Shown: one piece after another, positions 7,287 through 49,415 of the stretch | Layout of the letters: each line of letters starts with the position of its first letter | Position numbering within the stretch: position 1 is the first letter of the stretch | Source: Gemmatimonadota bacterium | Lineage (GTDB): Bacteria; Gemmatimonadota; Gemmatimonadetes; Gemmatimonadales; Gemmatimonadaceae | Assembly: GCA_028287285.1 (NCBI GenBank) | Contig: JAQBPY010000185.1 | Location: 1-64,000 of the forward strand | Length of the DNA stretch: 64,000 bases | Reading direction: 5' to 3' | Program-made: the position numbers and the translations under genes | Notes under the pieces: model-generated | Database searches by the model: none | Seen by the model: the letters and a program-made list of their open reading frames with translations, nothing else | What the model was told of the DNA's origin: nothing

Positions 7287-8148
7287 ATGCAATATCGCAT
7301 CGCGCTCTTCACGATCTCGGCGCTGACTCTGTCTGCGACCATCGCATTCGCCCAAACCAGCCCAAAGGCCACTCGTCCCGGTGCTGAAGGCATCGCATCC
7401 TCCGACACGTCCGCCAGCGCGCGCATCATCCGCGAAGTAAAGATCATCAATTTGCGCTGAGCGACCTCCAGCGCGGAGACGTCGTGCGACTCGCACCAAA
7501 ATCGCTCGATGATTTCGAAGCACTCATTGGCCACTTCAAGGGTCGCATCGTCATCCCGGCAACTCTGCACCAGGGGCACTGACACCGCACGATATCGCCT
7601 CGTCCCACGAAAAAGTCGCGCGCGCCATTCGCGACGAGCGCGTCTCGATGGAGATCGACATCGAGGGCACAGTGTCTCCCGCACCGTGCAGGCGTACAAC
7701 TCCATTGCCGAGCTCCGCGGAACCGACGCGCGAGTGAGGTCGTGATCATTGGCGCTCACCTCGACTGGTGGGACCTGGGCACCGGTGCCACGGACAACGG
7801 CACCGGCGTGGTCGCGGCGATGGAAGCGCTGCGTGCGACCAGGGCCATCGGAGTTGCACCACGCCGCACCATTCGCGTCGTGCTCTTTTCAGGAGAAGAG
7901 CAAGGGCATTGGGGCTCCAAGGCCTATGTCCGCGCACATACGGCAGAACTTGGCGTGACAGAGCTGCCCCTCGAAAAAGGAAGCGACTCGGATCACTGGT
8001 CGTTTGTCGAAGCGGGGCGTGCCCGGCTTTTGCCGTGCAGGACGTGCTGGATTATTTCACCGTCACGCACCACAGCCAGTTCGATACCTTCGATCGCGTA
8101 AAGCCGGACCAATTGATCCAGAGTGCGCAGACGCTCGCCGTACCGTGA
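7287..8148 (+). pseudogene. Decayed M28 zinc aminopeptidase
   Basis: Pieces of one secreted M28 peptidase appear in order but in several frames. The signal peptide piece starts MQYRIALFTISALTLS and stops at 7460. A second frame carries FALSDLQRGDVVRLAP and LIGHFKGRIVIPATL. A third frame from about 7720 carries [20 protein letters not shown] and [20 protein letters not shown], the H/D and E-E metal motifs of M28. A last frame gives [20 protein letters not shown]. Between GSKAYVRAH and the last piece a large part of the catalytic domain is missing. At least three frameshifts plus an internal deletion make this a dead gene. Confidence 0.75.
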
Positions 8149-8149
8149 C

Positions 8150-9532
8150 CTACTTCATCCAGATGACAATGGCACCGCACACCGAGTTCCCACCAAAGCT
8201 CGCGGGGGAATACTGATACTGCACTGGCAGACCGGGCCCATTGTATATCTCGATTCCCGCGATCTCGCTCGGCCTGATCCACGTGTCCAACTCGTCCGCC
8301 GTGAGTCCGTGCATGGGCCGGTCATTGATGTAGATCACTGGTGAGCACGAGTGTGTAAACGTCCCCCGCATGACGAACCGCTTGTCCATGCCATGCGTGA
8401 CCGTCGTGCGCACCCCCGCGATGCTGCGAAACAGATCCGACGTCATCAGCGGTTGACGGCGGGTGACGTCGGCGGCGGTGAAGTAATGGCCCACACCGCT
8501 GCGCCGCCGCTCCAGGAAACCCGCCCACCCCGGACGCAGTGCCGAGACCTTCATGGTGTCCAGCACGGCCTTGAGCGTGGAGAGTGAGATGTGAATGGGC
8601 TTCGCATCTGGAATGACGTCCACCCGCCGGCGCTCCGGGTAGTAGCCAATGGCCCGCACCTCGATCATCCGCGTGCCGGCAGGCGCATCGACCATCGTCC
8701 ATTCGCCACGCTCGTTCGTGCGCGTCTGTGGCCCCTCCACGAGACTTATCTGTGCGCCGGAGAGCGGCGCTCCGCTTGACGTAGCCATTACGGTGCCGCT
8801 CAACCGTCCATCACCTGTGTGCACTCGCCGCAGGCGGGCCGTATCATTGACTACGGTTGTAGTTGCAGCGCCCAGATAGATCTCGCGCCGCAGAAATCCG
8901 TCGGCGGGAACGTCCATCTCGATGCGATCGGTGCTGTCGGCGCCGCGGCTCGCCACGAGCACCATCGTGCCTGGACTCGGCACATTGCACATCGAAAACC
9001 ATCCATTGTCGCGAGTCGTTGCCATCCGGCTCGGTGTCCGATGTCCAATGGACTGCGGCCCGAACGAAAGCTCCAGCCACTGGGCGGTCACTGACACATC
9101 GGCAACCGGCTCGTGAGTCCGCGCGTCGAGAACCATACCGACGACGGCGGCGCCCGGCTGCGATCCACAGACCGCCGTGCGCAACCGTGCGGCTGACGGA
9201 ATGGCGAGGTCCGCGAATACCGCCTGCTGCCGGGTCACGTTCACCTCCTGCAGCATTGGCTCGATGCCGAGCGAGTCCTGCACGGGATGAAAGAATCCGA
9301 TGGTGTACCGGCCGTCGGGAATGTCACCGAGCGTATACTGGCCGAGCGAGTCGGTGATGGAGCTGCGGCCAAAGCGCGATGGGCCATCGGCCGCGGCGAG
9401 TTGCACCACCGCGCCGGCGAGGGGCACGCGGTTGATGCTGTCGCGCACCACGCCACGCACGGTGGCGCCGGGTATCTGCGCCGATGCGTGTTGAACGACG
9501 AGTACAAGACCTGCCAGGGTCTGCAGCCGCAT
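8150..9532 (-). CDS. CarboxypepD_reg repeats plus TonB-type plug, no barrel
   Basis: A 460-residue protein. The start is MRLQTLAGLVLVVQHASAQ, a signal peptide; the longer frame upstream is discarded because it would bury this signal. About three CarboxypepD_reg-like beta-sandwich repeats follow: VRGVVRDSINRVPLAGAVV, VVGMVLDARTHEPVADVSV and LSGTVMATSSGAPLSGAQI. The last ~130 residues look like a TonB receptor plug (MTSDLFRSIAGVRTTV, SPVIYINDRPMHG, IAGIEIYNGPGLP, CGAIVIW), but the protein ends there with no beta-barrel. It is probably a periplasmic or outer-membrane-associated accessory protein. A longer protein of the same architecture is encoded at 27301-29787. Confidence 0.8.
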   Translation of the reverse strand: MRLQTLAGLVLVVQHASAQIPGATVRGVVRDSINRVPLAGAVVQLAAADGPSRFGRSSITDSLGQYTLGDIPDGRYTIGFFHPVQDSLGIEPMLQEVNVTRQQAVFADLAIPSAARLRTAVCGSQPGAAVVGMVLDARTHEPVADVSVTAQWLELSFGPQSIGHRTPSRMATTRDNGWFSMCNVPSPGTMVLVASRGADSTDRIEMDVPADGFLRREIYLGAATTTVVNDTARLRRVHTGDGRLSGTVMATSSGAPLSGAQISLVEGPQTRTNERGEWTMVDAPAGTRMIEVRAIGYYPERRRVDVIPDAKPIHISLSTLKAVLDTMKVSALRPGWAGFLERRRSGVGHYFTAADVTRRQPLMTSDLFRSIAGVRTTVTHGMDKRFVMRGTFTHSCSPVIYINDRPMHGLTADELDTWIRPSEIAGIEIYNGPGLPVQYQYSPASFGGNSVCGAIVIWMK

Positions 9533-9661
9533 GTGGGCCTCGTTTCGCCAGGTGAGGTTGGTATTCAAGTCTACATGCAAATCGCGATCGCGCGAGGCCG
9601 GCAAGCCCGATGTGGGCAGACCTGTCGTCCTGGGCGTGGCGCAGGCACATAGATTTCGCGC

Positions 9662-42395: not shown

Positions 42396-45068
42396 TCAAC
42401 TCGACCGCAATGCCACCAGCGGATCTGCCAGTGCCGCCCGCCGCGCGGGCAGGTAACTCGCCAGGAACGCCACGGCAACGAACAGGGCAGAGGTCGCAAG
42501 AAACGTGGGCGCATCGAGTGGACTCACGCCGTAGAGAAATGCGACGAGCAATCGTGATGCGCCAACGGCGAGCACCAGTCCAAGCATCACGCCCAGCGCT
42601 GCGAGCCGCATCCCGCTTCGCACCACCATGCGCTGTACGTCCATTGCGCGCGCGCCGAGTGCCATGCGCACGCCGATCTCGCGGGCACGGCGGCTCACCG
42701 AGTACGAGATGATTCCGTACAGGCCAATGGACGCGAGGAGCAGGCCCAGGCCGCCCAGCGCACCGGTCACCATCGCGGCCAGCGCTGCGGCAGCAGCACA
42801 AAGCTCGTCGCGGTCCGCAACGTCACGACCTCGGGCCGCGGAAGCACCGGATCGAGTGAGCGTGTCGCATCCTGCACCGCACCCGATATCGACTCGGCCG
42901 TGCCATTCATGCGAATCATCAGGGTCTGTTCATTCGGCCACGCCTGCGCCGTGGGATAATAGACCATCTCCGGCGTGACTTCCGTGAGTGTGCCGTACTT
43001 CGCATCACGAACGACACCAACAACGGTGATCTGCTCCTTCTGCGCGATGAACGTCCGTCCAATGGCACTACCATTCGGCCAATGCTTTCGCGCCAGCGTT
43101 TCATTGACGACGGCCACGCGTGTTGCATGCGCATCATCACTTTGCTGGAACGCGCGGCCCATCAGGAGCGGGATCTTCACCACGGAGAAGTAGTCGACGT
43201 CGACGGAATTCGTCTCGACACGTGTCCCTTTGGTGCGCGCGCCAGGCGTTGCATCCTCGCCGTCGAACTGCACGAAGGTCCCGCTGCTGCTCATCTGCAG
43301 CGGCAGCTGCGCCGCGTACGATACGTTCGTCACACCAGGCGTAGCCAGCACTCGTTCACGAAGCGCATTGAAAAAGACCCTGGACTGTTGCTCGTTGTAG
43401 CCCCACGCCTCCGACTTGAAGGCAGCGGTCACCACACCATTCACGTCGAACCTTGGATCCACACGATTGCCGCGGTCGAGGGCGCGGAGCAGCAAGCCCG
43501 CCGATACCAGCAGCACGAGGGAAAGTGCGAGCTGCCCAACGACGAGCGCATTGCTGACGATACCCTTGCGGGCGTCGCCCGTGCGGGAATCGTTTCGCAG
43601 GCGGGACGTGATATCCAGCTTTGCCGCGCGGAGTGCCGGCGCGAGGCCGAACAGCACGCCACATGCCAGAGCAATTGCGAGCGCAAAGGTGAGGACACGC
43701 ACATCCGGCGTGAGGTGCAACGAGAGAGGCATCGAGGTAGGCAATGGAATGCGCTCGAGCATTCGCGTCGCGAGGAACGCGACACTCAACCCACCTGCGG
43801 CACCGAGCGCAAACACCACGAGACTCTCGGTGAGCAGCTGCCTGACGAGCCGAGTGCGGCCTGCGCCGAGTGCAACGCGAATGGCCATTTCGTGCTGGCG
43901 CGCAACGGCTCTGGCGGAGAGCATCGCCGCGACGTTCACGCTCGCGATCAGCAGCACGAGGAATGCGACTCCAAGCAGCACTCCGGTAAACGCGAGCATG
44001 GTCTTCTGTGCGTCATCGGGCAATCCCGTGAGACTGACGAGCCGAATACCATCATTCTTGCGCATCCATTCCGGCTCGACCCGCTCCGCGATCCGTGCAG
44101 CGGTCAGCGCGAGCAACTCCTGGCGAGCGGCTTCGCGGCTCACGCCCTCCTCGAGGCGGCCGAACGTCCAGAGCCAGCTCATCGAGGCGGACTCGAGACT
44201 CGCTTTGGGACGGACGCGAGGTTGCATCATGAGTGGAACCCATGCTGACGTCACCAACGGCGTGAAGACGCCGCGAAATCCGGCGGGGGCAACACCAATG
44301 ACGGTAAACGCCGTGCCGTTGACGCCAACGGTGCGGCCGATGGCGCTGCTGTCTCCATTGAGCACGCCGCGCCAGAATTCATGCGAGACGACAATGACGG
44401 GGGTGCGCGAGTGGAATTGCATCCTCTTCCGGCAGGAAGAAGCGACCAAGCGCCGGCCGCACACCGAGCACCAGGAAGAAGTTTCCGCTGACGATGTTTC
44501 CGTAGACGGAATGCCCCGTGCCGCCTGTGGAGATGGTGAGATCCGTCTTACCCCACGCTGCAACACCCGAAAGTGTTTGCGCCCGATCGCGCACGAATGT
44601 GTAGAAAGGATACGTGGCTTGGGTGCCACCATTTGCCGCCGTTTCGATGCGATCGATGCCGACGAGCCGCGACGGATCGCTCGCGCCTGGCAGCGGCTTG
44701 AAGAGGAACGCATTCGCGGCGCTGAAGATGGTCGTGACCGCGCCAACGCCCAGGGAAATCACCAGGACGACGACACTGGTGAACACCGGACTTCGTCGCA
44801 GCATCCGCAGCGAATAGCGGGCATCGGTGAGCAGCGTGGCCACCGTGTTTTCCCAGAGCGATGCGCGCACCGTTTCCCTGACGCCCGTGATGTTGCCCAC
44901 CTCTCGCAGTGCGGTGCGTCGCGCGTCATCCGGTGACATGCCGTTCGCGATGTTCGCCGCGACGGACTGCTCGAGGTAGTGCTGGACTTCGTCACTGATG
45001 TCGCGGCTCGACTGGCGTTCGTTGGTGAGTCCGCGAGCACCGCGTGTCAGCTGTCGCCAGAGTGACAT
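42396..45068 (-). pseudogene. ADOP-family ABC permease (MacB/FtsX-like) with two frameshifts
   Basis: Read from ATG 45068, the protein opens with the ADOP cytoplasmic helix-rich domain (SSRDISDEVQHYLEQSVAAN, ARRTALREVGNI), a first membrane helix, a MacB-like periplasmic domain and FtsX helices. The frame breaks twice. At the five-G run 44399-44403 an extra base changes AHPVIVVSHEFW. Near 42775, after SFVLLPQR, a base is missing before AAMVTGALGGLGLLL. Restoring both gives a continuous ~890-residue ADOP permease ending LPARRAALADPLVALRSS. Both lesions are single bases, one in a homopolymer, so either recent inactivation or sequencing error is possible. PadR lies two bases upstream. Confidence 0.78.
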
Positions 45069-45070
45069 GA

Positions 45071-45406
45071 TCAGCCCTCCGCGCGTAGGAGGCGGGCGAC
45101 GGCAGCCGCTCGACGCGTCCAGTCTTCCGTCTCGATGCCGAGCTGTTTCGTACCGGCGCGGGTGAGGCTGTAGAATTTGGCGCGGCGTGAATTTTCCGTC
45201 TGGCGCCATTCGGCGTTCAGCAGTCCGGCCCGCTCCATTCGCTGGAATGCGACCATGAGTGAGCCCGGATTCACCTTGAACACACCGCGCGAGATCTGCT
45301 CGATTCGCCGTGCCACGCCGAAGCCGTGCATCGGCTCGAGGCTCAACGACTTGAGGATGAGCATGTCGAGCGTTCCCTGAATGACGTCGGTGCTGGGCTG
45401 GTCCAT
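45071..45406 (-). CDS. PadR-family transcriptional regulator
   Basis: A 111-residue winged-helix protein starting MDQPSTDVIQGTLDMLILKS; GGGAG precedes this ATG, favouring it over an ATG four codons upstream. LEPMHGFGVARRIEQIS and GSLMVAFQRMERAGLLNAEW are the PadR recognition region. It lies directly before the ADOP permease, an arrangement widespread in Acidobacteria and Gemmatimonadota, and a perfect palindrome stands 20 bases upstream. It probably represses its own operon. Confidence 0.9.
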   Translation of the reverse strand: MDQPSTDVIQGTLDMLILKSLSLEPMHGFGVARRIEQISRGVFKVNPGSLMVAFQRMERAGLLNAEWRQTENSRRAKFYSLTRAGTKQLGIETEDWTRRAAAVARLLRAEG

Positions 45407-45426
45407 GTCGACTCCCATTGAGCGTC

Positions 45427-45447
45427 ACATCTTGATGGTCAAGATGT
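45427..45447. promoter_or_regulatory. Perfect palindrome, likely PadR operator
   Basis: Arms ACATCTTGA and TCAAGATGT around TGG. The outer ACAT/ATGT matches the general PadR operator pattern, and the site lies just upstream of the padR-like start, consistent with autorepression. A TACTAC/GTAGTA context flanks one side. Confidence 0.7.
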
Positions 45448-45606
45448 AGTACGCAGGGACCGTGTGCGAGGTTTCAGGGTGCCATTCCGTCGTCCGGCAC
45501 TCTTTCGGTACGGGCGGAACGGATCCAGCTCTGGCGTACGCTATCAACACGGCCCAGACTCCCATGAGTACACGCTCTTGCACATCTCTCGATGAGGTCC
45601 TGGCTG

Positions 45607-46458
45607 GTGACTATCGCTATCGCACTCAAGGTTGGAGATGGGGTTGTTCTTGGCGCCGACAGTGCATCCACGCTTGCGGCAGGTTCTCAAGTACTCAACG
45701 TCTATTTCAATGCAGAGAAAGTTTTCAACCTTTGCAAGGGGCTTCCAATCGGAGCAGTCACCTATGGATTGGGGTCGCTGCAGAATCGCTCGATCGCTTT
45801 GCTCTCAAAGGACCTGCGGGAGCGCCTTTCGGCCAGCGGTAAGTGGGAACTCAAGAGGAACCAGTTCCACGTGAAGGATGTAGTGGAACGAATGCGTGAA
45901 TTCTTCTACGAAGAGCGCTACAAAAAGGAATGGCCGCGCCAGCTGACGGACCCCGCTACGGGCTTGGAGAGGGATGTCTACGCAGCCAGGGGGTTCATGG
46001 TAGCGGGCTATTCTGCTGGACAGCGTGAAGCAGAGGTCTGGACCTTTGAGATCGATCCATCGGGAACTGCCGCAATTACTGAGCTCTTCCCGGTCGGCCA
46101 TACGGGCATCGAGGCCAAGGGACAGCCTGAAGCCCTGCTTCGGCTTATGAACGGGTGGTCTCCGCGAATACTTGAAGGCCTCGTTGCTTCTGGCATCCCA
46201 CTGCAGGACGCGTTAACCTTCCTTCGGTCGCAGGCGATGGAGCCGCTGGTGCAGTCGGGAATGCCGATTCAAGATGCTATCGACCTGGTACGCTACTTGA
46301 TCGAGGTTACTGCAGGGTTCGTGCGTTTCATTCCTGGCGAACTTTCAGTCCACGAACCAATTGATATCGCGGCAGTGACATATCATGAAGCCTTCCGTTG
46401 GGTTCGTCGGAAGCACTATTTCTCGCCTGAACTGAACCCTCCTTCTCCAGGAGTGTAG
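45607..46458 (+). CDS. Proteasome-like Ntn-hydrolase family protein
   Basis: A 283-residue protein. The GTG at 45607, with GAGG nine bases upstream, is chosen over ATG 45592 because it yields M-T-I-A-I-ALKVGDGVVLGADS. Met removal would expose Thr as residue 1. Counting from it, Asp of GADS is residue 17 and Lys of FNAEKVFNL is about 37, equivalent to Thr1, Asp17 and Lys33 of proteasome beta subunits and HslV. FMVAGYSAGQREAEVWTFEI plus DPSG matches the later beta-strand pair of that fold. Residues ~185-283 are a helical extension with an internal duplication (LVASGIPLQDA / LVQSGMPIQDA). Base composition is clearly more AT-rich than the flanks, suggesting transfer. No ATPase partner is adjacent. 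Protease or amidase activity is inferred. Confidence 0.72.
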   Translation: MTIAIALKVGDGVVLGADSASTLAAGSQVLNVYFNAEKVFNLCKGLPIGAVTYGLGSLQNRSIALLSKDLRERLSASGKWELKRNQFHVKDVVERMREFFYEERYKKEWPRQLTDPATGLERDVYAARGFMVAGYSAGQREAEVWTFEIDPSGTAAITELFPVGHTGIEAKGQPEALLRLMNGWSPRILEGLVASGIPLQDALTFLRSQAMEPLVQSGMPIQDAIDLVRYLIEVTAGFVRFIPGELSVHEPIDIAAVTYHEAFRWVRRKHYFSPELNPPSPGV

Positions 46459-46487
46459 GATGTCGCGAGTTCCTCAGGGAGGTTGAA

Positions 46488-46664
46488 GTGCACTACGACA
46501 ATCAGGGAAAGCCAATCGAATATGACTACCAACGCTCAGGCATAGCAGGCGCTACAATCAGGCCTGAGGATCGTCGCCCGCCGCAGCCTCTTTCACGGAT
46601 TGATAGCGAGCGAGTGAAGGAAGCGGTGAAAAAAATCGAGCAGCAACAGAAGCCGAACAAGTAG
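46488..46664 (+). CDS. 58-residue charged protein downstream of Ntn-hydrolase
   Basis: A GTG start preceded by GGGAGG at six-base spacing, 29 bases after the Ntn-hydrolase stop. It begins MHYDNQGKPIEYDYQRSG, has a Pro/Arg-rich centre (RPEDRRPPQPL) and a helical, Lys/Glu/Gln-rich C-terminus (SERVKEAVKKIEQQQKP). It is likely disordered at the N-terminus. Composition matches the preceding gene rather than the flanking genome. It could be a partner or substrate adaptor; it lacks the C-terminal Gly-Gly-Gln/Glu of Pup. Confidence 0.5.
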   Translation: MHYDNQGKPIEYDYQRSGIAGATIRPEDRRPPQPLSRIDSERVKEAVKKIEQQQKPNK

Positions 46665-46683: not shown

Positions 46684-49326
46684 TCACAGAGTGTAGAGGA
46701 CGAAATACGGCTGATTCGCCAGCTCGGCGGCGAATCCCGGATACAGCGCCGGCCGCTTCTGGTGTTCCGTGAGCTCGAAGTAATACTGCAGCCCATACGG
46801 CGATGCCGTATACGCCCCCGGGATGACTCCCCGGAACATTCCATTTTGCAGCACGAGCTCCGCCACCTCATACCGCTCCGCCTGATTCACGTGGCGATAG
46901 TACATCCGCACCGCGTTGGCTGCCGTCTTCACGCCAATCGCAACATCCACCCCTCGCTTGAATGAGGCGGGCGGCGTGTGCGTGCACGCGATGACGCTGC
47001 GCGTTTCGGCGCGCACGGCATCAATCACCGCTCCAATATTGTGGTCGACAACGGGGAGTGCCGCCAGCTTCTTGGACATCTGGTCGATGTCCTGGTCGAG
47101 CAGCCCGAGACGATCTGCCCAGTGTCCGTGCTCGGAAATCTTGTCGGATACCGAGAGGTCGTTCTGGTACACGGACGTGGACCACTGTACCACGGCGGTC
47201 CATGACTCGCGTGCCGACCTGTACGCGCGCAGCGCTTCACCGAGCGCTCTCGTGTCGCCGGTCTTTTCATGCAGCGCGTAGAACACGCCACTCATGAGCT
47301 TCGCACCAAAGAACCTGCCCAGGCCGGCCTGAATGTGAACATCGGCGACGATCCTCCGCGCCTGCGCGGACGTCTGCGGGCCGGCCCGCTCGAGATCCCG
47401 CTCCGCACCGAGGGCCAGCCCAGTGATCCATCGCTCCACGTCGAGCGGAGAATATTTGCCGGTCCGCTTTCCACTCAGCAACTCGTCCGCACATTCGGAG
47501 ATCGACGAGAACAGCTGCGGATCCAGCGGACTCACGTGCTGAAAGTTCTTCGGCGACGGTGAATCCGTATAGGGATTTCCCGGTGCCTCCGCGAGCATTG
47601 GTTGATTCCAGTAGATCTCCGGCCAGTATGCATCACACGCAGCCGATGGCAGATGCGCGGTGGTGACGATGGGCAGGATCCGACTGGCCTTCGCCAGCGC
47701 CGAGGCGAGCGCCGAGCCACCGGTGCCTGCGTGGAATTCGCGCCGAAAGACATCCGCGGCCGTTGCGGGGTTGTACATCATACGCCCGAGCGTGCGATAC
47801 CAACTGCCGAACTTTTCCCAATCATGGCTCGGGGCCAGCGTCTCGTCGCGATACCCATCGCGACGTAAAACGCCCGTACCTCGACGACCGCGGCAGGTGA
47901 GCGGCTCCATGAGATCCGCGCCCGTCATGCCCGCAAATCCGAATGACCGCGAGTACGCGGCCGCCCACACAGGATCACCGGACGCAAGCAGGCGTTGCGT
48001 ACCCGCAAAGATGCGTGTACGTACAGTGTACGTGCGATCATTACGCATGAGGTCCGCATAGCCATATCGCGTGAACACGCGCGACCCTTCACTCAACGTC
48101 ATGAGGCCGGCGCCGGTGCGTCCAGCAACGGGCATTTCCAGCTCACGTATCGCCGCCTGGTGATACGGCATCCCGCAGTGTTCGGCGGCGAACTTGGGCG
48201 AGAGGTTGATCGGCATTCCTGTCTTCGCCGCGCGTGCGATCATCGTCGCGTCGATGCCTTTGGCATGCAGGTCGATCTCGATGGTTCTGCCCGCCCGAGG
48301 CACACCATCAAAGATGGTGCTCCAGAATTCATAGCTGCCTTCGGCGATGCCGCTCTCACCATGAATGCGCAGCCCAACACTCGAGATTGACGGGCATGCC
48401 TTCAGCACCGCCGCCAGCGCATCCCGGCAATAGGGTGCATGCGTGTCGCTGTCGAGACCCTGGATGACGTACTTCGCATCGGGACTCTTCGGCATCTGGT
48501 AGCCGTGCATCCACAACCCGAGCTCGAAGTCGAGTCCGCGTGCAACCGTCTCGTCACTGATGAAGCGCAGCATCTCGAGATTCCGGTCGCGCTCCGCGTC
48601 GGGGAGATTCGATGCCCGCACACCGTATCCGGGAACCGCCACGAGAAACGGATACGTGAAGACGAAGTACGAATCACGCACGTTGGTGAGCGTGTCGTAT
48701 CCCAATCCGAACGCCAGGTGTAGGCGGTTGAAGCGATGCGTGGCAAGCATGGTGAGATAGGCTTTCCAGCCATCGCGATCGTGGAACCACGGCTTGTCGA
48801 GCGGTTCGCTCGTGAACTGGCGCATGACGCTGCGCACCGGATTTGCCGGCCGTTCGATGATCGGTTTCGTGATGCGGAGCGACGCGAGCGACGCGCGCGC
48901 CGTCGCTGGCGAACGAACTCTATCGGCGATGTCCAGCAGAGCATAGGCAAGACCGCGGCTGTCGGCACCGGCCGCGACGATCGCGTGCCGGCCGTTCACC
49001 CGCGTTTCGAAAAGGGCGAGGCTCTCCGCATCGCTCGGAACGGAAGACGCCGTGAGTGTGGCGAGCGGGGTCCTGTTTCCTGTTGCAATGATGCAGACGT
49101 CGCCTGCCCCGGCATCGGTGATGCGCCCAACGGTCCGCACGGTGACCTGTACGTCGACGAGTCGCTGCACAAGCTCGGCAACGGCCCATTTTACAGGAGC
49201 GGACGATGCGATTGCGTCGTCCGGGTCAATGACGATGGCGACAGTTGGCGCTGACTCGCCTGGCCACCGCGGCATCGATAGTGCGGCACCGGCAAGCCCC
49301 ATCCGGAAGAAATCCCGTCGGTTCAT
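46684..49326 (-). CDS. Tat-exported glycoside-hydrolase-like protein
   Basis: An 880-residue protein starting MNRRDFFRMGLAGAALS, a twin-arginine signal. Residues ~35-160 have the layout of the N-terminal domain of alpha-glucuronidases and hexosaminidases (APVKWAVAELVQRLVDVQV). From ~175 a barrel-like region follows with FNRLHLAFGLGYDTLTNVR, ELGLWMHGYQ, VGLRIHGESGIAEGSYEFW and IDLHAKGIDATM. The C-terminal third is helical. No exact family is assigned; an enzyme acting on uronic-acid or amino-sugar polymers is the best guess. The upstream in-frame ATG at 49362 would displace the Tat signal and is rejected. Confidence 0.7.
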   Translation of the reverse strand: MNRRDFFRMGLAGAALSMPRWPGESAPTVAIVIDPDDAIASSAPVKWAVAELVQRLVDVQVTVRTVGRITDAGAGDVCIIATGNRTPLATLTASSVPSDAESLALFETRVNGRHAIVAAGADSRGLAYALLDIADRVRSPATARASLASLRITKPIIERPANPVRSVMRQFTSEPLDKPWFHDRDGWKAYLTMLATHRFNRLHLAFGLGYDTLTNVRDSYFVFTYPFLVAVPGYGVRASNLPDAERDRNLEMLRFISDETVARGLDFELGLWMHGYQMPKSPDAKYVIQGLDSDTHAPYCRDALAAVLKACPSISSVGLRIHGESGIAEGSYEFWSTIFDGVPRAGRTIEIDLHAKGIDATMIARAAKTGMPINLSPKFAAEHCGMPYHQAAIRELEMPVAGRTGAGLMTLSEGSRVFTRYGYADLMRNDRTYTVRTRIFAGTQRLLASGDPVWAAAYSRSFGFAGMTGADLMEPLTCRGRRGTGVLRRDGYRDETLAPSHDWEKFGSWYRTLGRMMYNPATAADVFRREFHAGTGGSALASALAKASRILPIVTTAHLPSAACDAYWPEIYWNQPMLAEAPGNPYTDSPSPKNFQHVSPLDPQLFSSISECADELLSGKRTGKYSPLDVERWITGLALGAERDLERAGPQTSAQARRIVADVHIQAGLGRFFGAKLMSGVFYALHEKTGDTRALGEALRAYRSARESWTAVVQWSTSVYQNDLSVSDKISEHGHWADRLGLLDQDIDQMSKKLAALPVVDHNIGAVIDAVRAETRSVIACTHTPPASFKRGVDVAIGVKTAANAVRMYYRHVNQAERYEVAELVLQNGMFRGVIPGAYTASPYGLQYYFELTEHQKRPALYPGFAAELANQPYFVLYTL

Positions 49327-49415
49327 GGGCACAAGCATACCATTCGGCGAAATTCTTCGCACCCGATGTCCTGGTGCGCCATATTGAGCCCGGACCGTTC
49401 ATCGGGAGCAATCGC

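What the first reader, a model, noticed from the sequence alone, without database searches (positions are those of the whole stretch)
45607..46664. Orphan proteasome-like Ntn-hydrolase with a small charged partner in a low-GC insert
Seen: starting at the GTG with the better ribosome binding site, residue 2 is Thr, and Asp17 and a Lys at ~37 fall where Thr1/Asp17/Lys33 of proteasome beta subunits lie; a later GYSAG...DPSG strand pair also fits. A ~95-residue helical extension with an internal duplication follows. A 58-residue charged ORF with a GGGAGG site lies 29 bases downstream. Both are more AT-rich than their flanks. Known: HslV, Anbu, BPH and 20S beta subunits use this triad. Inference: this is a separate Ntn group moved by transfer, with the small gene as partner, adaptor or substrate. 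No ATPase is adjacent.
Basis: partly seen in the sequence, partly recalled or inferred. Interest (0 to 1): 0.65.

Follow-up and report, generated by a model that had tools for sequence, protein, structure and literature searches.

The report
Proteasome-like protease with coupled mini-partner
This gene makes an uncharacterised relative of the proteasome's cutting subunit, and across many bacteria and archaea its relatives are wired in one operon to a tiny fast-changing protein and, in a third of cases, to a classic toxin gene, which suggests the proteasome-like enzyme is the built-in switch of a toxin-antitoxin-like module.

Summary
ORF 45607-46458 is a proteasome-beta-like Ntn hydrolase: the model is confident (pLDDT 93) and every leading fold match is 20S proteasome. 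Thr/Ser follows the start Met, and Asp18 and Lys38 are invariant in 81 aligned sequences. The "helical extension" is mostly the normal second half of the fold, with two extra helices. The family is sporadic in bacteria, archaea and prophages and probably belongs to the "PMI" proteasome homologues described in 2021, for which no genomic context was found.

The context is the new part. Outside one proteobacterial clade, 50 of 62 homologues (81%) carry a 40-140 aa ORF with a ribosome site right behind the gene, against 15% of control genes. These ORFs are under purifying selection although their sequences vary greatly. In 25 of 80 loci the next gene is a toxin of one of four unrelated families (MazF/PemK, PIN, RelE/ParE, Fic/Doc). 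Partners in those loci are longer and end in acidic, antitoxin-like tails. The window belongs to a toxin-less clade with basic ~60 aa partners.

Best reading: a dedicated Thr-protease that acts on its small partner. Where a toxin is present, that would release it. The proteolysis itself is inferred, not shown.

The parts
45594..45597 (+). GAGG ribosome-binding site of the Ntn gene, 9 nt before GTG
   Evidence: sequence
45607..46458 (+). proteasome-beta-like Ntn hydrolase, 283 aa, GTG start, no propeptide
45610..45612 (+). codon of Thr2 (= Thr1 after Met removal), presumed nucleophile; T or S in 79 of 81 aligned rows, 2 gaps
45658..45660 (+). codon of Asp18 (proteasome Asp17 position), invariant in 81 of 81
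45718..45720 (+). codon of Lys38 (proteasome Lys33 equivalent), invariant in 81 of 81
46162..46230 (+). two inserted helices (residues 186-194 and 199-208) between H3 and H4
   Evidence: AF2 model; an H3/H4 insert is described for PMI-2 to PMI-6 in PMC8665760
46261..46284 (+). near-invariant MPxQDAID motif at the start of helix H4 (residues 219-226)
46477..46482 (+). GGGAGG ribosome-binding site of the small ORF
   Evidence: sequence
46488..46664 (+). small basic Pro/Lys-rich partner ORF, 58 aa, 29 nt after the Ntn stop, with YDYQ motif; homologous to the small ORF at the same place in L039 (Gemmatimonadaceae)
45071..45418 (-). PadR-like regulator flanking the cassette; its block is kept in congener G396 (L137) without the cassette
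   Evidence: the PadR name is by reading
46684..49362 (-). 892-aa flanking gene, not found in nine congeners

Best explanation
The window holds a two-gene cassette: an N-terminal-threonine hydrolase of the proteasome-like family, and a small, probably disordered protein translated from the same message. It belongs to a widespread mobile module with the order Ntn hydrolase - small partner - optional toxin. Proposed working: the Met is removed, Thr1 becomes the nucleophile (with Asp17 and Lys33 equivalents), and the enzyme binds and cuts its dedicated partner. Where a toxin (MazF, RelE/ParE, PIN or Fic/Doc) follows, the partner's longer acidic C-terminal part is the antitoxin, its N-terminal part is the handle for the enzyme, and cutting it frees the toxin. 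In the toxin-less branch to which the window belongs, the ~60-aa basic partner is the dedicated substrate or regulator of the enzyme alone. Shown: fold, catalytic residues, conserved linkage, purifying selection on the partner, toxin linkage with repeated toxin exchange, and different partner length and charge by context. Inferred: peptide-bond cleavage, the partner as substrate, toxin release, and the trigger.
For: Fold and active site: AF2 model pLDDT 92.9; the listed Foldseek PDB hits are all 20S proteasome, E down to 3.5e-8, TM by target about 0.65-0.69 for beta chains; T/S2, D18 and K38 conserved. Partner: 50 of 62 loci outside the Roseomonas/Noviherbaspirillum-type clade have a 40-140 aa ORF with a ribosome site within -20..+60 of the stop, against 66 of 455 control genes and 3 of 18 in that clade. 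pN is below pS in all nine pairs tested, several with dN/dS 0.14-0.23, toxin-less loci included. Gemmatimonad partners are related to each other (z = 13; window vs L039 0 of 500 shuffles, vs G112 p = 0.002). Toxins: Pfam names PemK/MazF, PIN, ParE and Fic/DOC for the third gene. With profiles built from these, 25 toxin hits lie directly downstream and 2 elsewhere in 1.02 Mb. On the tree the four toxin types need 7 changes, so toxins have been exchanged. Partner form: median 91 aa with toxin vs 60.5 aa without (p = 3.5e-7); tail charge about -7 (MazF), -3.5 (RelE), -2.5 (Fic), -1.4 (PIN), +3.6 (no toxin). Sister groups (430-aa phrog_5990 type, 245-aa Ser type) also have a 41-67 aa ORF directly downstream in most loci read.
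Against: No proteolytic activity is shown. Proteasome-like does not mean protease: connectase is a ligase (PMC8665760). The small ORFs share no significant universal motif, match no antitoxin family or solved antitoxin, and the read-through fusion model gave no confident contact (partner pLDDT about 40). The window locus has no toxin. One proteobacterial clade keeps the enzyme without any partner, so the enzyme can work alone or on something else. Toxin profiles were built from the downstream genes themselves, which favours finding them there.
Confidence: 0.5

Rival explanations
1. The Ntn hydrolase is itself the harmful effector and the small ORF is its inhibitor (a protease-inhibitor toxin-antitoxin pair). 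Toxins in other loci are extra effectors added to the same control gene.
For: Toxin-less pairs are common and partners are variable and coupled; relatives sit at cargo positions of phages and satellite phages.
Against: The enzyme is first in the operon and survives without a partner in an 18-member clade, which is unlikely for a toxin; it does not explain why partners become antitoxin-like when toxins are present.
Confidence: 0.2
2. The enzyme works like connectase: it ligates or transfers the small protein, or part of it, onto another protein, and the small protein is a tag or modifier.
For: Connectase, in the same superfamily, is a specific ligase (PMC8665760). Partners are small, soluble, often Lys-rich at the end, and some share a YxYQ motif.
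Against: No conserved end or recognition sequence common to all partners; toxin linkage and acidic tails fit an antitoxin better.
Confidence: 0.12
3. The Ntn protein is a non-catalytic scaffold or chaperone that binds and stabilises the small protein or antitoxin, as the chaperone does in toxin-antitoxin-chaperone systems.
For: Conserved coupling and a disordered partner would also fit a chaperone.
Against: Invariant T/S-D-K and the fixed start that exposes Thr/Ser imply selection for catalysis.
Confidence: 0.1
4. An ordinary uncharacterised proteasome homologue beside unrelated small genes; the toxin context is a by-product of mobile islands.
For: The small ORF sequences do not align across phyla.
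Against: 81% versus 15% control linkage, purifying selection, and toxins always directly behind the partner rather than scattered.
Confidence: 0.05

Closest known systems
PMI-type proteasome homologues (Fuchs, Alva, Lupas 2021, PMC8665760), most likely PMI-2
   Same: Proteasome fold, Thr/Ser1-Asp17-Lys33 and Gly47 equivalents, no propeptide, insert between helices H3 and H4, bacteria plus Euryarchaeota. The 430-aa phage-borne sister family (phrog_5990) resembles PMI-4.
   Different: That paper reports no genomic context or co-occurrence pattern; here a coupled small partner and toxin genes are found. Exact assignment to PMI-2 could not be tested because the reference sequences were not at hand.
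20S proteasome beta subunit, HslV, Anbu, BPH
   Same: Same fold and catalytic residues.
   Different: Sequence scores below the curated family cut-offs for the window protein; no adjacent HslU or other ATPase; about 280 aa with extra helices; the genome has its own HslV-type gene elsewhere.
Connectase
   Same: Proteasome-like enzyme with an N-terminal nucleophile and no propeptide.
   Different: Connectase lacks helices H1-H2 and has an S3/S4 insert; the window protein has H1-H2 and its insert lies between H3 and H4.
Type II toxin-antitoxin modules (MazEF, RelBE/ParDE, VapBC, Phd-Doc)
   Same: In 25 of 80 relatives the small partner overlaps or abuts a toxin of one of these families.
   Different: The window has no toxin; a proteasome-like enzyme leads the operon. 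From general knowledge, known modules rely on host Lon or Clp proteases rather than their own.
Three-part toxin-antitoxin-chaperone systems, and COG2856 (ImmA/IrrE-like) peptidase-Xre pairs (recalled, not tested)
   Same: A third component or a peptidase linked to an antitoxin-like gene.
   Different: Different enzyme superfamily: SecB-like chaperone or zinc peptidase rather than an Ntn threonine hydrolase.

Membership tests
Proteasome-like family (Ntn hydrolase clan) | Proteasome beta fold (beta sandwich flanked by helices) | tested here: met
Proteasome-like family (Ntn hydrolase clan) | N-terminal Thr/Ser, Asp17, Lys33 equivalents conserved | tested here: met
   T/S 79 of 81 (2 gaps), D 81 of 81, K 81 of 81
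Proteasome-like family (Ntn hydrolase clan) | Score above the Pfam PF00227 gathering cut-off | tested here: not met
   12.3 bits against 22.4 for the window protein; 19 of 63 members hit at E up to 1, best 8.9e-5; structure and profile searches support membership in the wider family
Proteasome-like family (Ntn hydrolase clan) | Peptide-bond hydrolysis or ligation by the N-terminal nucleophile | not testable with these tools
   -
PMI-2 subfamily (PMC8665760) | Insertion between H3 and H4 | tested here: met
   helices 186-194 and 199-208; description
PMI-2 subfamily (PMC8665760) | Falls in the PMI-2 sequence cluster (WP_137109689.1) | not testable with these tools
   reference sequences are in an external data set not at hand
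HslV | Adjacent HslU ATPase | tested here: not met
   no ATPase gene beside the cassette; a separate PF00227-positive gene is on contig C289
Type II toxin-antitoxin module | Toxin gene directly adjacent to the small gene | tested here: not met
   window: the next gene is a convergent 892-aa ORF. Met in 25 of 80 relatives
Type II toxin-antitoxin module | Small gene matches a known antitoxin family | tested here: not met
   Searches (toxin-bearing partners; window partner): no antitoxin family
Type II toxin-antitoxin module | Partner neutralises the toxin | not testable with these tools
   -
Known anti-phage defence system (PADLOC) | Match to a PADLOC model | tested here: not met
   none

The most novel reading that the evidence does not exclude
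A new kind of module: toxin-antitoxin-like operons that carry their own proteasome-type protease, so that a dedicated threonine protease rather than host Lon or Clp decides when the antitoxin is destroyed. The toxin-less branch (including this window) would be a stripped-down protease-substrate switch, and the same logic would run through a whole branch of proteasome homologues in bacteria, archaea and phages.
Probability: 0.4. Interest if true: 0.9.

Novelty: new variant of a known kind. Interest (0 to 1): 0.78.

Why it matters
The 2021 survey that catalogued these proteasome homologues found no hint of their function. A conserved coupled partner and repeated linkage to four unrelated toxin families give the first testable role. 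If right, proteasome-like enzymes act as private switches of toxin-antitoxin-type modules, which bears on how antitoxins are removed and on what proteasome ancestors did before they teamed up with ATPases. The module is small and ready for a laboratory test.

Tried and rejected
Universal motif in the small ORFs: Gibbs sampling over 44 partners gave no convincing signal over shuffles. A Y-x-[YF](-Q) motif is enriched (8 of 29 partners against 0.6 expected for Y[EDNQH][YF]), but it was chosen after looking; in held-out phage partners it recurs mainly in relatives, and in only 1 of 6 unrelated ones.

Model of enzyme plus partner by reading through a stop in L042 (single chain): partner unstructured, no contact.

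Solved-structure, plasmid and Pfam searches for antitoxin homology of partners: nothing convincing.

Direct PDB sequence search with the single window protein: nothing meaningful. Plasmids: no match to the window protein.

Helical extension with internal duplication: rejected as a misreading of the fold. Known defence system: no PADLOC match. ATPase partner: none nearby.

Full report
WHAT IS IN THE WINDOW. ORF 45607-46458 (+) starts with GTG 9 nt behind a GAGG and encodes 283 aa beginning M-T-I-A-I-A-L-K-V-G-D-G-V-V-L-G-A-D-S. A second ORF, 46488-46664, follows 29 nt after the stop with GGGAGG in front and encodes 58 aa. The upstream neighbours (a PadR-like regulator and an ABC-type permease) and the downstream 892-aa gene are on the other strand. 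Both cassette genes are AT-richer than the surroundings: GC3 0.595 and 0.593 against a window mean of 0.712 (sd 0.071), the Ntn gene being 4th lowest of 41 ORFs. In a congener (G396, L137) the padR-permease block is kept (69% nucleotide identity) up to window position 45405, and beyond it lies a different gene with no cassette. The 892-aa downstream gene is found in none of nine congeners. Among 395 genomes of the phylum 7 others hold a full-length or near full-length relative, plus remnants.

FAMILY AND FOLD. Pfam and NCBIfam give no accepted hit for the window protein; PF00227 Proteasome appears below cut-off (12.3 bits against 22.4). A profile of 63 members reaches yeast proteasome subunits at E = 0.0013, and 19 of 63 members hit PF00227 at E up to 1, best 8.9e-5. 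The AF2 model from 63 sequences has mean pLDDT 92.9 and pTM 0.90. The leading Foldseek hits in the PDB are all 20S proteasome chains (E down to 3.5e-8, TM by target about 0.65-0.69 for beta chains). In BFVD the best hit is a phage protein named proteasome beta type-2 (E = 6e-10). Over 81 aligned sequences the residue after the start Met is T in 67 and S in 12 (two gaps), D18 and K38 are invariant, and G49 is G in 72. In many genomes the upstream stop lies only one to a few codons before the start, so there is no propeptide. The supposed helical extension is H3, two inserted helices, H4 and the last two strands of the sandwich. Literature: Fuchs, Alva and Lupas (PMC8665760) described 22 new proteasome homologues, among them six PMI types, several with an H3/H4 insert, and state that they found no genomic context suggestive of function. 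By insert position and taxonomic range this family is most likely PMI-2, and the 430-aa family phrog_5990 (window protein matches it at E = 2.9e-15) looks like PMI-4.

THE SMALL PARTNER. A scan of genome contigs gave 80 loci in Gemmatimonadota, Actinomycetota, Pseudomonadota, Acidobacteriota, Chloroflexota, Bacillota, Methanobacteriota, Helarchaeota and others; IMG/VR gave 23 viral loci. In 50 of 62 loci outside the Roseomonas/Noviherbaspirillum-type clade an ORF of 40-140 aa with a ribosome site starts within -20 to +60 of the enzyme's stop, often with ATGA overlap. The same criterion is met behind 66 of 455 other genes in the same loci and in 3 of 18 members of that clade. The 12 exceptions include L056, L060, L070, L081, L090 and L111, which do have a partner that this criterion misses. 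The ORFs are genes: pN is below pS in all nine pairs, with dN/dS 0.14-0.23 in several, including toxin-less loci. Gemmatimonad partners are related to each other (summed score z = 13; window against L039: 0 of 500 shuffles as high). Across phyla they share no significant universal motif. A YxYQ-like motif recurs in the window (YDYQ), several Pseudomonadota, a Chloroflexota and an archaeal partner, but the held-out test is weak once relatives are removed. The sister groups show the same arrangement: phage-borne 430-aa relatives have 41-59 aa ORFs right behind, two bacterial 430-aa relatives have 62-67 aa ORFs, and the two 245-aa Ser-type relatives have 50-51 aa ORFs overlapping by 4 nt.

THE TOXINS. 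Directly behind the partner, often overlapping it, 25 of the 80 loci have a toxin gene. Pfam names PemK/MazF (L047, L049, L053, L062), PIN (L051, L064, L065, L072, L077, L080, L114), ParE or ParE-like (L056, L079; L109 sub-threshold) and Fic/DOC (L110, L117). Further PIN (L081, L086, L090, L111) and RelE-like members (L060, L070, L074, L076, L082) are assigned by profiles built here or by their similarity. L074 itself had no Pfam hit, so the RelE label of L074 and L076 is weaker. A viral locus, L160, is followed by a Fic/Doc-like ORF by reading. In 1.02 Mb of locus DNA these profiles find 25 genes at that position and 2 elsewhere; the profiles were trained on the downstream genes, so this overstates the contrast somewhat, but the Pfam identifications are independent. 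On a maximum-likelihood tree the four toxin types need 7 changes and lie intermingled (for example MazF L047 beside PIN L051), so toxins were exchanged around a constant enzyme-partner core. The window lies in a toxin-less clade of 38 rows (support 96/82). Partners with toxins are longer (median 91 against 60.5 aa, p = 3.5e-7) and their last 35 residues are acidic (MazF -7, RelE -3.5, Fic -2.5, PIN -1.4) whereas toxin-less ones are basic (+3.6). Known antitoxin families were not recognised.

MECHANISM. The arrangement suggests a modular partner: an N-terminal part that goes with the Ntn enzyme and, where a toxin is present, a C-terminal antitoxin part. The simplest mechanism is that the Thr-hydrolase cuts or degrades the partner, which in toxin-bearing loci frees the toxin. 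In the window's toxin-less version the enzyme and its substrate or regulator remain. Whether the enzyme is a protease, a ligase or a binding scaffold is not shown. The cargo-type location of relatives in prophages and satellite phages (beside lysis genes, or near the end of Streptococcus satellite phages) fits a role in phage-host or element-host conflict, but no known defence model matches.

NOVELTY. The enzyme family itself is known as uncharacterised proteasome homologues. Literature searches in the open-licence library found no report linking them to a small partner or to toxin-antitoxin genes; subscription papers and preprints are not covered.

Noticed in passing
window 42767-45428, minus strand: The ABC-type permease upstream appears split between two frames (ORF 44379-45428 carries the N-terminal part, ORF 42767-44746 the rest), while the congener G396 has one intact 894-codon ORF; pseudogene or assembly error.
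   Followed up: partly
L023 (G112:C45) 7592-8696: Homologue of the Ntn gene broken into two frames, and in L030 (G023:C5) 9415-9600 only a fragment of the C-terminal part remains: signs of loss of the cassette.
   Followed up: partly
L127, L131 and other Streptococcus satellite phages (Javan series): The 430-aa sister proteasome homologue is cargo of satellite phages, directly behind a putative regulator; in Javan421 a RelBE pair lies about 1.7 kb further on.
   Followed up: partly
L022, BK068103.1 25469-26713: In a Porphyromonas phage the sister homologue lies between portal/adaptor and neck genes, an unusual place; a head-maturation role was not excluded.
   Followed up: no
L078, L083-L085, L087-L089, L091-L093, L095, L098, L100, L102, L103, L106, L107, L115: A proteobacterial clade (Roseomonas relatives, Noviherbaspirillum) keeps the Ntn enzyme but has no small partner; several members have sensor-kinase-like genes nearby.
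   Followed up: no
G000 and G396: About 20 PadR-like paralogues in the window genome and 14 in one congener.
   Followed up: no
L061, L119, L120: The cassette lies next to phage lysin and tail-fibre-like genes, suggesting prophage cargo.
   Followed up: partly
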